10,599 nucleotides of DNA from NCBI GenBank assembly GCA_030024065.1, contig JASEIE010000120.1:1-10599 (forward strand), written 5' to 3'. The stretch is from Thermodesulfobacteriota bacterium (lineage in GTDB: Bacteria > Desulfobacterota > BSN033 > UBA1163). A model generated the notes under the pieces. That model was not told where the DNA came from. It saw only the letters and a program-made list of their open reading frames with translations, and ran no database searches. Positions 500 to 6,115 of the stretch are shown in pieces (position 1 is the stretch's first letter; each line of letters starts with the position of its first letter). Position numbers and translations under genes: made by a program.

Positions 500-973
500 T
501 CAAAGGTTTTCGATGATGGCAGATCCAAATTCAGAACATTTGACTTTCTTTGCCCCTTCCATCTGGCGGGCAAGATCGTAGGTGACGATCTTTTGTGAAA
601 TCGTCTTCGTAATGGCCTTTGTGATTCTCTGCCCTGCCTCACTCCAGCCCAGGTAATCAAACATCATTGCCCCGGAAAGGATGACGGATCCCGGATTGAT
701 CACATCCTGATTGACATATTTGAGTGCCGTCCCATGGGTGGCTTCAAAGACGGCTGCCGTATCCCCGATGTTTCCTCCGGGGGCCATGCCCAGCCCGCCC
801 ACCTGGGCTGCCAGGGCATCGGACATGTAATCCCCGTTGAGGTTAGGCATGGCCAGCACTTCATACTCATCAGGCCTGAGGAGGATCTGCTGAAACATCG
901 CATCCGCAATCCGGTCTTTGATCACGATCTTTCCGAATTGAACACCATCCTCAGACAAAAGAATGAGTCTGGA
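500..973 (-). pseudogene. icd: Remnant (C-terminal third) of an E. coli-type NADP isocitrate dehydrogenase
   Basis: About 155 codons match the C-terminal part of bacterial type I isocitrate dehydrogenase: VIKDRIADAMFQQILLRP, then NLNGDYMSDALAAQVGG (metal-binding Asp region), GGNIGD, FEATHGTA (cofactor-binding loop), NPGSVILSGAMM, and a normal C-terminus KCSEFGSAIIENL. The family is usually about 400-420 residues, so roughly the first 260, including the substrate-binding serine and most of the large domain, are missing. An in-frame TAA lies at 974-976, and the only start is a TTG at 956-958 without a convincing ribosome site. It follows a complete but only distantly related icd by about 50 bp. 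Codon use (CGG/CGC/AGG/AGA for Arg, mixed Lys) looks like the flanking resident genes rather than the acl-icd block. I read it as the surviving 3' end of the original resident icd. The retained sequence shows no internal frameshift, so the loss seems recent, or the junction is an assembly artefact. Confidence 0.85.
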
Positions 974-1025
974 TTAAAGAAAAAAAATAGAAGAATTGGA
1001 GCCTTATGGACAAAGCCCCTAACCA

Positions 1026-2252
1026 CTAATTATACCCCTTCAACTTCTTCTCAAGGTTCTTCTTGATGGCAGCTATGAATTCCTCTGTGAAAACCACCTT
1101 GTTGTTGGGGCTGGGATTGGCCCACTGTTCGAGGTCCTTGGTCATGATGCCACTCTCGATTGTCTCTATGGAGGCTGCCTCAAGCTTGTCAGCGAAGTCC
1201 ACGACCTCCGGGGTCTTGTCCATCTCGCCCCTCTTCCGCAGGCCACCGGTCCAAGCGAATATGAGGGCCATGGGATTGGTGGAGGTCTTCTCGCCCTTCT
1301 GGTGTTTGTAGTAGTGCTTCTGGACCGTCCCGTGGGCGGCCTCGTACTCGAAGTACCCGCTGGGGGAAACCAAGACAGAGGTTATCATCGCCAGACTGCT
1401 GAAGGCTGAGCCGAGCATGTCTGACATGACATCACCATCGTAGTTCTTGACCGACCACAGCATGCCTCCCTCAGACTTGATTACCCTCGCCACCGCATCG
1501 TCGATCAAGGTGTAGAAGTAATCCAGTCCGGCTTCCTCGAACTTCTTCTTGAAATTGTTATCGTACTCATCCTGGAAGATCTCCCTGAAGGTCCCATCGT
1601 AGGTCTTCGAGATGGTGTCCTTAGTTGAAAACCAAAGGGGCATCTTGCGGTCCAGGGCATACAGGAAGGAAGCCTTCGCGAAACTCCTTATAGATTCGTC
1701 GGTGTTGTGGATGCCCTGAAGGATGCCTGGTCCCTTGAAGTCCTGGATGGTGAGCTTGATGGGGTCACCCTTGACGGGTGTGAACACAATCTCGCCCTTA
1801 CCCGCCTCCAGGACGCGGATCTCCTGGTTCTTGTAGACATCACCATAGGCGTGCCTGCCGATGTAGATGGGCTTCTTCCAGGTCCTCACGCCAGGCGGTA
1901 TGTTCTTGACAAGGATGGGTCCCCTGAAGATGGTACCGTCGAGGGCAGCCCTCAGGGTGGCGTTGGAACTCTTCCACTCCTGCTTCAGGTTGTATTCCTT
2001 AATTCTGTTCTTGTCCGGCGTGATCGTGGCGCACTTGACACCGATTGTGTGCTTCTTTATGGCGTTCGCGGCGTCCACGGTGATCTTGTCATTGGTCTCG
2101 TCCCGCTTCATCAGACCGAGGTCGAAATACTCCAGCTTCATGTTGAGGTAGGGAAGAAGGAGCTCGTCCTTCACCCACCTCCACATGACCCTGGTCATTT
2201 CATCCCCATCTATCTCGACTAATGTGTTTTTTACATCGATCTTCCTCTCCAT
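1026..2252 (-). CDS. icd: NADP-type isocitrate dehydrogenase, eukaryote-like (IDH1/IDH2) subfamily
   Basis: Interconverts isocitrate and 2-oxoglutarate plus CO2; in a reverse TCA cycle it would work as the reductive carboxylase. The 408-residue length matches cytosolic/mitochondrial IDH of eukaryotes (about 414). Signatures in order: EIDGDEMTR (13-21), GVKCATITPD (71-80), IGRHAYGD (131-138) with Arg133 at the position of human IDH1 Arg132, STKDTI (209-214) with the catalytic Lys211, LIDD (249-252), KNYDGDVMSD (269-278) with metal-binding Asp274 and Asp278, EAAHGTV (304-310), and TSTNPMALIFAWT (323-335). His313 is kept in the NADP-phosphate site, with Lys312 where human IDH1 has Arg314. The segment after Asp278 (MLGSAFSSLAMITS) departs from the usual AQGxGSLGxMTS. 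An in-frame TGA directly precedes the ATG, so this is the first possible start; its ribosome site is weak. It lies 81 bp after aclA and shares its AGG-rich codon style, suggesting co-transfer. The 81-bp spacer holds only a 7-bp A/T-rich hairpin (2283-2304). Confidence 0.95.
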   Translation of the reverse strand: MERKIDVKNTLVEIDGDEMTRVMWRWVKDELLLPYLNMKLEYFDLGLMKRDETNDKITVDAANAIKKHTIGVKCATITPDKNRIKEYNLKQEWKSSNATLRAALDGTIFRGPILVKNIPPGVRTWKKPIYIGRHAYGDVYKNQEIRVLEAGKGEIVFTPVKGDPIKLTIQDFKGPGILQGIHNTDESIRSFAKASFLYALDRKMPLWFSTKDTISKTYDGTFREIFQDEYDNNFKKKFEEAGLDYFYTLIDDAVARVIKSEGGMLWSVKNYDGDVMSDMLGSAFSSLAMITSVLVSPSGYFEYEAAHGTVQKHYYKHQKGEKTSTNPMALIFAWTGGLRKRGEMDKTPEVVDFADKLEAASIETIESGIMTKDLEQWANPSPNNKVVFTEEFIAAIKKNLEKKLKGYN

Positions 2253-5511: not shown

Positions 5512-5571
5512 TTTCTCACCCCGACTGTCATCTATAACCTGTTTCTGGTCTTTTTTCTTCCAATCATAACT

Positions 5572-6115
5572 TCACTTCTTTGCAGTATACGGTAACAGCC
5601 CACCGGCTAGCATGTGTTCTACCTGTCTTGAAGAAAGAGTATATTTTCCCTTATACTCATTGCCTCTTACCACGTCCTTTATGGTGATATCCTTTCTATT
5701 TTTCAGTTCATCAGCAATGCTGGGAAATTCGAGTGCGTCCCCCTGCTGTATATCATTGTATATGTTTTCATCTATGGTGAATTTTTCTGGCATTCTTACA
5801 TTACGATATGATATGTTGTATTTTTTTTCTAATGTTCTCGGATTGGTAATTTTTCCAGTAATCACTGCCGCAACGGCGGTTTCTGGGCTCACCAAATACA
5901 CCTGACCAGATTCCGTCCCCGATCGCCCTTCAAAGTTCCTGTTGCTCGTTCTCAAGGACACTGAATCAGTTCCAGGTGCAAAACTGTTACCGATACAGAA
6001 TCCACAGGCAGATTCCAGGATTCGTGCACCACTCGCTATTAGGCCCTTCAATGCACCTTTATGCAATCATTTCTAAAACCTGTTTTGATCCCGGGGCAAC
6101 ACCAACAAATTCACT
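5572..6115 (-). pseudogene. 5'-truncated, frameshifted remnant of a second aconitase
   Basis: The readable part (164 codons from a TTG at 6066) begins at HKGALKGLIASGARILESACGFC and keeps cluster ligands CxxC (residues 21 and 24), SVSLRTSNRNFEGRSG and YLVSPETA, all aconitase-superfamily signatures. Homology continues upstream in another frame from 6115 to 6062, reading SEFVGVAPGSKQVLEMIA, which parallels VSLVVSPGSRQVLKMLA of the intact aconitase. A TAA then interrupts it; a 2-nt loss in GCA(CA)TAAA explains the shift. The N-terminal half with the first cluster Cys is absent. The tail (about residues 85-164, with SSRQVEHMLAGGLLPYT near the end) shows no recognisable swivel domain, so the source differs in layout from the intact gene. 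Codons are A/T-rich, with AGA Arg and ATA Ile, unlike both neighbours. It cannot be an active aconitase as it stands. A short expressed peptide from the TTG is possible but unsupported. Confidence 0.85.

What the first reader, a model, noticed from the sequence alone, without database searches (positions are those of the whole stretch)
500..6115. Reverse-TCA module spliced into a resident acn-icd locus, leaving two gene remnants as scars
Seen: intact acn is followed by the 3' part of another aconitase, then aclB-aclA-icd (eukaryote-like), then the 3' part of a bacterial-type icd. Each intact gene directly precedes the truncated remnant of a non-orthologous gene of the same function. Inference: a donor fragment running from within an aconitase gene through aclBA to a full icd replaced the interval between a resident acn and the 5' part of a resident icd. 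One such event would add ATP citrate lyase and swap the isocitrate dehydrogenase type, a route for converting a TCA cycle to the reductive direction.
Basis: partly seen in the sequence, partly recalled or inferred. Interest (0 to 1): 0.85.

Follow-up and report, generated by a model that had tools for sequence, protein, structure and literature searches.

The report
Foreign citrate-lyase block inside bacterial operon
A bacterium related to Syntrophales carries, in the middle of an old metabolic operon, a block of foreign genes for ATP citrate lyase and a different isocitrate dehydrogenase, with broken leftovers of two redundant genes at its edges; gene transfer of this kind is known, and this case is useful because relatives keep the uninterrupted locus.

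Summary
On the minus strand the order is sdhA-sdhB-acn-[acn remnant]-aclB-aclA-icd(eukaryote-like)-[bacterial icd remnant]-korD. Two relatives of the resident genes, a Syntrophaceae MAG (L002) and genome G092 of its order, have sdhA-sdhB-acn-icd-korDABC uninterrupted (acn and icd 12 bp apart in L002). AclA was found in 0 of 23 searched genomes of that class. aclB-aclA-icdE has a codon usage unlike the flanking genes (p = 1.3e-10 for Arg). Its AclA groups apart from the 8 Desulfobacterota AclAs. So this is a foreign block in a resident operon.

'One donor fragment, one event': the acn remnant lost its first half, carries a frameshift and an internal deletion of about 145-150 codons, and its GC3 (0.41) differs from the rest of the block (0.67-0.78); pruning after insertion fits as well. 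'Conversion to the reductive direction': the two empty-site relatives show no PF00285 citrate synthase and carry CODH/ACS, so citrate lyase could also form citrate. An operon of acn, aclBA and icd is already published. Only one contig shows the junctions, and no reads were available.

The parts
8842..10470 (-). resident flavoprotein subunit, TfrA/SdhA/FrdA-like
   Evidence: best NCBIfam TfrA 350.9 bits, below that model's cut-off of 718; 85% identical in L002, 82% in L081, 80% in L080
8048..8833 (-). resident iron-sulfur subunit (2Fe-2S and 4Fe-4S dicluster domains), TfrB/SdhB-like
   Evidence: 72% L002, 71% L081, 70% L080
6073..8022 (-). resident aconitase, near full length, with a tail of about 13 residues read from inserted DNA
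   Evidence: in a 7-row Syntrophales-type group of the tree, 100/100
6109..6120 (-). left junction: resident ...LAFVK meets donor-aconitase DNA
5572..6113 (-). remnant of a second aconitase of the acl/icdE-linked type: 5' half lost, frameshift near 6066, internal deletion of about 145-150 codons at about 5758-5763
   Evidence: in an 18-row group (with itself), 100/100
4234..5511 (-). aclB, ATP citrate lyase ATP-grasp/citrate-binding subunit, intact
   Evidence: PF16114 2.2e-82, PF24948 2.2e-78; best solved chain 6hxi_A, 534 bits
2334..4223 (-). aclA, ATP citrate lyase CoA-ligase/citryl-CoA lyase subunit, intact
   Evidence: 6hxi_B 839 bits; 6znw_B, Methanosaeta concilii ACLY-B, 836 bits; motifs present
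1026..2252 (-). icdE, eukaryote-like NADP isocitrate dehydrogenase, intact
   Evidence: closest solved structure 4aou, 582 bits
935..1025 (-). right junction zone, no clear homology
500..958 (-). remnant of the resident bacterial-type icd, last ~36%
   Evidence: 86% to L002, 79% to L081
221..426 (.). MITE-like element with terminal inverted repeats, between icd remnant and korD
   Evidence: pairs I3 and I5
2..193 (-). korD, 2-oxoglutarate:ferredoxin oxidoreductase delta-like subunit, start of the resident kor genes, cut by window end
   Evidence: below the family cut-offs; 83% L002; korDABC follows in L002 and L081

Best explanation
A resident, Syntrophales-type operon sdhA-sdhB-acn-icd-korDABC received a foreign acl operon (acn-aclB-aclA-icdE order) in the same orientation between acn and icd. 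The now redundant pairs were resolved: the resident acn was kept and the incoming acn became a pseudogene; the incoming icdE was kept and the resident icd lost its first ~260 codons. The retained foreign genes now sit in the resident transcription unit and supply ATP citrate lyase plus a type-switched NADP isocitrate dehydrogenase. Shown: gene order, lesions, empty loci in relatives, foreign codon usage, separate trees. Inferred: insertion before pruning, an archaeal (Thermoplasmata-like) or similar uncultured donor, co-transcription, function.
For: Uninterrupted locus in L002 and L081. No full AclA in G001 (only SucD-like matches), and none at E<=1e-60 in 17 genomes of the order or 23 of the class, while the same query finds AclA in 8 of 395 genomes of the phylum. 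aclB/aclA/icdE RSCU correlate at 0.69-0.77 with each other and at -0.22 to 0.43 with the flanking genes; Arg AGR vs CGN p=1.3e-10 and Ile ATA p=6.2e-7. acn tree: resident group 100/100; remnant in another group, 100/100, of whose 17 other rows 16 have acl or icdE in the fetched stretch (L025 has neither). AclA tree: window apart from all 8 Desulfobacterota AclAs. acn-aclB-aclA is the order in loci L047, L048, L049, L051, L052, L055, L056, L079. Three lesions in the acn remnant against intact aclB, aclA, icdE.
Against: Junctions are seen in one contig only; the window's acn cluster P0121 has a single member. The remnant's GC3 0.41 against 0.67-0.78 in the rest of the block, and a codon log-ratio outside the range of all 92 donor pieces, fit poorly with one donor; its Arg and Ile codons do fit the donor (p=0.35, 0.36). 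No donor genome closer than 66% AclA was found. The nearest loci differ by gene: L079 for the remnant, L089 for AclA. The sdhAB-acn-icd locus is seen in only 2 of 17 genomes of the order, and these are 78% and 74% identical in acn.
Confidence: 0.76

Rival explanations
1. One reading: a single double-crossover in which one donor fragment, beginning inside the donor aconitase and ending after icdE, directly replaced the stretch from the end of resident acn to the middle of resident icd.
For: Gene order and the two truncated ends fit it. acn-aclB-aclA is a native order in eight loci, so remnant and acl genes could have come as one piece.
Against: The remnant also has an internal deletion and a frameshift, so deletion has acted there since. 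Its GC3 differs from the rest of the block, while other acl operons are mostly even. The nearest fetched loci are not the same for all parts: L079 for the remnant's N-terminal 100 residues (70%), L089 for AclA (66%), L085 for near-full-length AclB (63.5%; L079 62%).
Confidence: 0.3
2. Composite block: the acn fragment and the aclB-aclA-icdE genes came from different sources in separate transfers.
For: GC3 0.41 vs 0.67-0.78 and codon log-ratio -0.174 per codon against +0.08 to +0.35 for equal-sized donor pieces.
Against: acn directly before aclB is the order in eight loci. Arg and Ile codon choice of the remnant fits the block (p=0.35, 0.36) and not the resident genes (p=0.041, 0.0008).
Confidence: 0.2
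3. Chimeric metagenome contig: acl-icdE DNA of another organism was joined artificially to a Syntrophales contig.
For: One contig only, no second copy of this acn in the protein search; no reads.
Against: Two independent joins would have to fall in acn and icd, which abut in two relatives. acn and its remnant share no 11-mer outside the 43 bases counted in both stretches, and icdE and the icd remnant share none. Pseudogene lesions lie inside the remnant.
Confidence: 0.13
4. Function rival: citrate lyase here works in the citrate-forming, ATP-yielding direction of an oxidative or horseshoe pathway, not in a reductive cycle.
For: The two relatives with the empty locus show no PF00285 citrate synthase (0 of 2) but have CdhC (2 of 2). 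Acetate oxidation through an ATP citrate lyase with ATP synthesis is the title subject of Moeller et al. 1987 on Desulfobacter postgatei (title seen in reference lists of PMC12137691 and PMC9768450; paper itself not read; the direction of the enzyme there is recalled).
Against: G707, a third acl-less genome of the order, has a PF00285 citrate synthase. Relatives may make citrate with Re-citrate synthase, known in Syntrophus aciditrophicus, leaving no gap to fill. Completeness of G001 and G092 is not told.
Confidence: 0.4

Closest known systems
Operon of ATP citrate lyase, icd and aconitase in Thermovibrio ammonificans (PMC5441870, passages seen)
   Same: The two citrate lyase subunits are organised with icd and aconitase in one operon; acquisition of ATP citrate lyase by horizontal transfer is proposed there for two Aquificae families.
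   Different: Here the unit sits inside another operon of an unrelated host, keeps the host's own aconitase, and leaves two pseudogenes.
Mosaic operons by horizontal transfer and gene displacement in situ (Omelchenko et al. 2003; title seen in the reference list of PMC2259305 only; content recalled)
   Same: A foreign gene takes the place of a resident gene of the same function within a conserved operon.
   Different: Here several foreign genes came in, a new function (citrate lyase) was added, and remnants of the displaced and redundant genes remain.
Patchwork reductive TCA acquisition in Chlorobiales (PMC9560492, passages seen)
   Same: Citrate lyase, icd and aconitase have separate transfer histories.
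   Different: Inferred there from trees in the passages seen; here one contig shows the junctions.
Two-subunit ATP citrate lyase with solved structures 6hxi and 6znw (Methanosaeta concilii)
   Same: Closest solved chains for both subunits.
   Different: Host and gene neighbourhood.

Membership tests
Two-subunit ATP citrate lyase | AclB: ATP-grasp plus citrate-binding domains over full length | tested here: met
   PF24948 1-232 of 232, PF16114 1-176 of 177
Two-subunit ATP citrate lyase | AclA: CoA-ligase part plus citrate-synthase-like lyase part | tested here: met
   PF00549, PF00285; residues 8-620 of 629 match 6hxi_B and 12-618 match human ACLY (6hxh)
Two-subunit ATP citrate lyase | catalytic motifs kept (phospho-His GHAGA; lyase His/Asp motifs; residue roles recalled) | tested here: met
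   motifs at AclA 280, 421, 495, 545
Two-subunit ATP citrate lyase | citrate cleavage activity | not testable with these tools
   needs enzyme assay
Gene displacement in situ in an operon | uninterrupted locus in relatives of the host | tested here: met
   L002, L081; 2 of 17 genomes of the order
Gene displacement in situ in an operon | incoming and flanking genes have different tree positions | tested here: met
   support for the icdE position is modest (88/89)
Gene displacement in situ in an operon | incoming genes keep a foreign composition | tested here: met
   for aclB, aclA, icdE; mixed for the acn remnant
Complete reductive TCA cycle | ATP citrate lyase present | tested here: met
Complete reductive TCA cycle | ferredoxin-dependent 2-oxoglutarate synthase and fumarate reductase | tested here: inconclusive
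   korD cut at the window end, korDABC in relatives; TfrA/SdhA-like gene direction unknown
Complete reductive TCA cycle | pyruvate synthase, remaining enzymes, and autotrophic growth | not testable with these tools
   no genome held for the window
Chimeric contig | coverage break or mate conflict at a junction | not testable with these tools
   no reads available

The most novel reading that the evidence does not exclude
In a syntroph-type bacterium of a class where 0 of 23 searched genomes have it, a foreign, probably archaeal, acl-icdE block inserted at the acn-icd joint made the resident branch acn-icd-kor-fumarate-reductase a cycle in one step, with the resident sdhAB, acn and kor genes kept in place. 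The acn-icd joint is a repeated landing site: in G707 of the same order, a different foreign-like acn-icdE pair stands after resident-type sdhAB while icdB-korDA lies on another contig.
Probability: 0.2. Interest if true: 0.78.

Novelty: new variant of a known kind. Interest (0 to 1): 0.52.

Why it matters
Citrate lyase is widely used as a marker of the reductive TCA cycle (PMC9560492, passages), and its transfer is there inferred from trees. This locus shows where and how such genes can enter: inside the operon that already holds the neighbouring steps, with redundancy removed one gene per side. It makes stepwise gain of a closed cycle testable, because acl-less relatives with the intact site exist. 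It also warns that finding acl genes does not tell the direction of the cycle.

Tried and rejected
acl ancestral at this place and lost in L002 and G092: not favoured. L047 (same phylum) has acn-aclB-aclA followed by a bacterial-type icd, but its acn is in the other group and its AclA (L042 in the tree) is not near the window's. It is not fully excluded.

Acn remnant as part of the resident genome: rejected by the tree and by Ile codons. My first codon test had seemed to say that the remnant is resident-like; the Arg and Ile test showed donor-like choice, so the difference lies mainly in GC3. Both are reported.

Finding the donor: AclA at E<=1e-60 in 4 of 300 genomes of the phylum of L012's genome, 10 of 256 of the class of G463 within it (overlapping set), 1 of 29 of the phylum of L007's genome, 50 of 195 of the phylum of L008's genome. 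Best identity 66% (L089). In a viral-contig scan 3 stretches matched a pattern and none encoded a relative.

An argument I dropped on re-checking: that one genome (G726, L079) is nearest for the remnant, aclB and aclA alike. It held for the loci fetched up to but not after the later searches.

Direct or inverted repeats at the two junctions as an insertion mechanism: none recognised among the repeats listed (20 of 46 direct families and 25 of 31 inverted pairs are shown there); the MITE-like element is not at a junction.

Protein search with the acn remnant to find the same scar elsewhere: among the 120 listed of 351 hits, 8 align across the deletion point, all at 42-51% identity, so none is a close copy. 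The best hit, P0241 (89% over 57%), continues with other sequence past that point. Six of the 240 listed proteins were read in full; P0168 and P0219 were used in the tree as well.
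Full report
Observation. On the minus strand: TfrA/SdhA-like (10470-8842), TfrB/SdhB-like (8833-8048), aconitase (8022-6073), an aconitase remnant (about 6113-5572), aclB (5511-4234), aclA (4223-2334), eukaryote-like NADP icd (2252-1026), a bacterial icd remnant (958-500), and korD (193-2). The gaps aclB-aclA and aclA-icdE are 10 and 81 bp.

The resident locus. A genome scan returned 25 loci, all by their aconitase. The closest, L002, a Syntrophaceae MAG, has sdhA (85%), sdhB (72%), acn (78%), icd (86% over the remnant) and korD (83%) in one line with only 12 bp between acn and icd, followed by korA, korB and korC. 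A second genome of the same order, G092 (L060/L081), has the same line including korDABC. Aconitase was found in 17 of 17 genomes of that order. Of these, 2 have the acn-icd pair with sdhAB, 1 has sdhAB-acn-icdE, and 14 show no icd of either type within the flanks fetched (up to 1.5 kb on each side). AclA was not found in G001 (only SucD-like matches), nor at E<=1e-60 in 17 genomes of the order or 23 of the class, a set that includes those 17. The same query found it in 8 of 395 genomes of the phylum. Completeness of these genomes is not told.

The insert. aclB, aclA and icdE share one codon usage: pairwise RSCU correlations 0.69-0.77, GC3 0.67-0.78, arginine by AGR in 53 of 62 codons and isoleucine by ATA in 39 of 108. 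The flanking genes use AGR in 37 of 106 and ATA in 10 of 118 (Fisher p = 1.3e-10 and 6.2e-7). Arg and Ile codons of the acn remnant fit the insert (p = 0.35, 0.36) and not the flanks (p = 0.041, 0.0008), but its GC3 is 0.41. Over all synonymous codons it scores -0.174 per codon, below all 92 equal-sized pieces of the insert genes (minimum +0.081). In the other acl operons examined, GC3 is similar from gene to gene. This mixed result is left open.

Scars. In J1 the resident reading ...LAFVK runs into DNA whose other frame reads VGVAPGSKQVLEMIA, the counterpart of VSFVVAPGSRQVL in acl-linked aconitases. The resident protein therefore ends with about thirteen residues of accidental sequence. The remnant then shifts frame near 6066 and lacks about 145-150 residues between IDENI and YNDIQQGD when aligned with L048. 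A short relative of the remnant, P0241 (89%), continues past that point with different sequence. At J2, homology to bacterial icd begins at GKIVIKDRIADAM (position about 934), about residue 261 of 404 in L002; the 91 bp between this and the icdE stop have no clear match. icdE and the icd remnant share no 11-mer, and neither do acn and its remnant outside the 43 bases that were counted in both stretches.

Trees. Intact acn falls with L002, L081 and four database proteins (7 rows, 100/100). The remnant falls in an 18-row group (100/100) whose 17 other rows have acl or icdE in the fetched stretch in 16 cases (L025 shows neither); its exact place there is unresolved. In the AclA tree (76 rows), the window sits with eight unnamed database proteins (9 rows, SH-aLRT 100), in a larger set of 49 rows (99) with proteins named Thermoplasmata, Thermoplasmatales, Petrotogales and Anaerolineae, one AclA of the L007 phylum and one of the L008 phylum. 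All 8 Desulfobacterota AclAs, the 10 of the L012 phylum and 9 of 10 of the L008 phylum lie on the other side (midpoint root). The tree used AclA hits up to P0060 of 600-700 aa plus named ones, not all 120 listed of 7844. The icdE tree has nine distinct rows and places the window with L057, L058 and L080 at 88/89 only. An archaeal donor is therefore likely, not shown.

The donor-type operon is native elsewhere. acn-aclB-aclA occurs in L047, L048, L049, L051 and L052 (5 of 8 AclA genomes of the phylum of L002; in the other 3, L050, L053 and L054, no acn was found in the stretch fetched), in L055 and L056 (phylum of L012, Crenarchaeota by title) and L079 (phylum of L007, an archaeon by title); acn-icdE-aclB-aclA occurs in L057 and L058. 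The loci were not examined for gene order. Such an operon with icd is published for Thermovibrio ammonificans (PMC5441870, figure legend passage). Nearest fetched loci by identity are L079 for the remnant's N-terminal 100 residues (70%) and L089 for AclA (66%); over near full length, L085 (63.5%) and L079 (62%) for AclB.

A parallel case. In G707 of the same order, resident-type sdhAB (80% and 70%) is followed by an acn-icdE pair whose Arg and Ile codons differ from sdhAB (p = 0.0045, 0.00015); the two controls L002 and L081 show no such step (p = 0.5, 0.4; 0.22, 1). Its acn lies in the acl/icdE group, and its bacterial icd (83%) with korD and korA lies on another contig. The stretch around acn and icd has thus been rearranged at least twice in this group, if the window's host belongs to it.

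Mechanism and function. I favour insertion of a foreign operon next to the resident acn, then loss of one member of each redundant pair. Citrate lyase subunits and icdE are intact, with the expected domains and motifs. The direction of flux cannot be read from the sequence. The two empty-site relatives show no PF00285 citrate synthase (0 of 2; G707, also without acl, has one), and CdhC is found in 3 of 3. Re-citrate synthase is known in Syntrophus aciditrophicus (passages of PMC12016533). ATP synthesis through citrate lyase during acetate oxidation is the title subject of a 1987 paper on Desulfobacter postgatei, of which I saw the title only.

Literature. Searches for ATP citrate lyase with Syntrophales (1 paper), with Desulfobacterota and reductive tricarboxylic acid (8 papers), with horizontal gene transfer, reductive TCA and aclA (4 papers), with Thermoplasmata and archaea (14), with Deltaproteobacteria/Desulfobacter/horizontal/autotroph (15 listed of 171), and for aconitase, isocitrate dehydrogenase and gene displacement (1) showed in their listings no report of this arrangement. 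Only listings were seen except for the passages cited. Patchwork acquisition of rTCA genes is described for Chlorobiales (PMC9560492, passages).

Noticed in passing
window 221-426: MITE-like element of about 206 bp with 20-nt terminal inverted repeats (85% complementary) and further internal inverted repeats, between the icd remnant and korD; the same gap in L002 holds a different repeat-like stretch.
   Followed up: partly
L080 3139-8842 and L109 7312-10003 (genome G707): Resident-type sdhAB followed by a foreign-like acn-icdE pair, while bacterial icd-korDA lies on another contig: an independent rearrangement around the same genes.
   Followed up: partly
proteins P0003-P0007, P0009, P0010, P0012-P0016, P0021, P0043: Proteins of about 1000 aa; P0003, the one read, looks like two AclA-type units in tandem, unlike the AclB-AclA fusion of animals.
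   Followed up: no
L047 10913-12133 (genome G147): A Desulfobacterota acl operon followed by a bacterial-type icd (65% to that of L002), a different combination of the same parts.
   Followed up: partly
G001 and G092 (relatives with the empty site): No PF00285 citrate synthase found although acn-icd-korDABC is present, so citrate may come from a Re-citrate synthase or the genomes are incomplete.
   Followed up: partly
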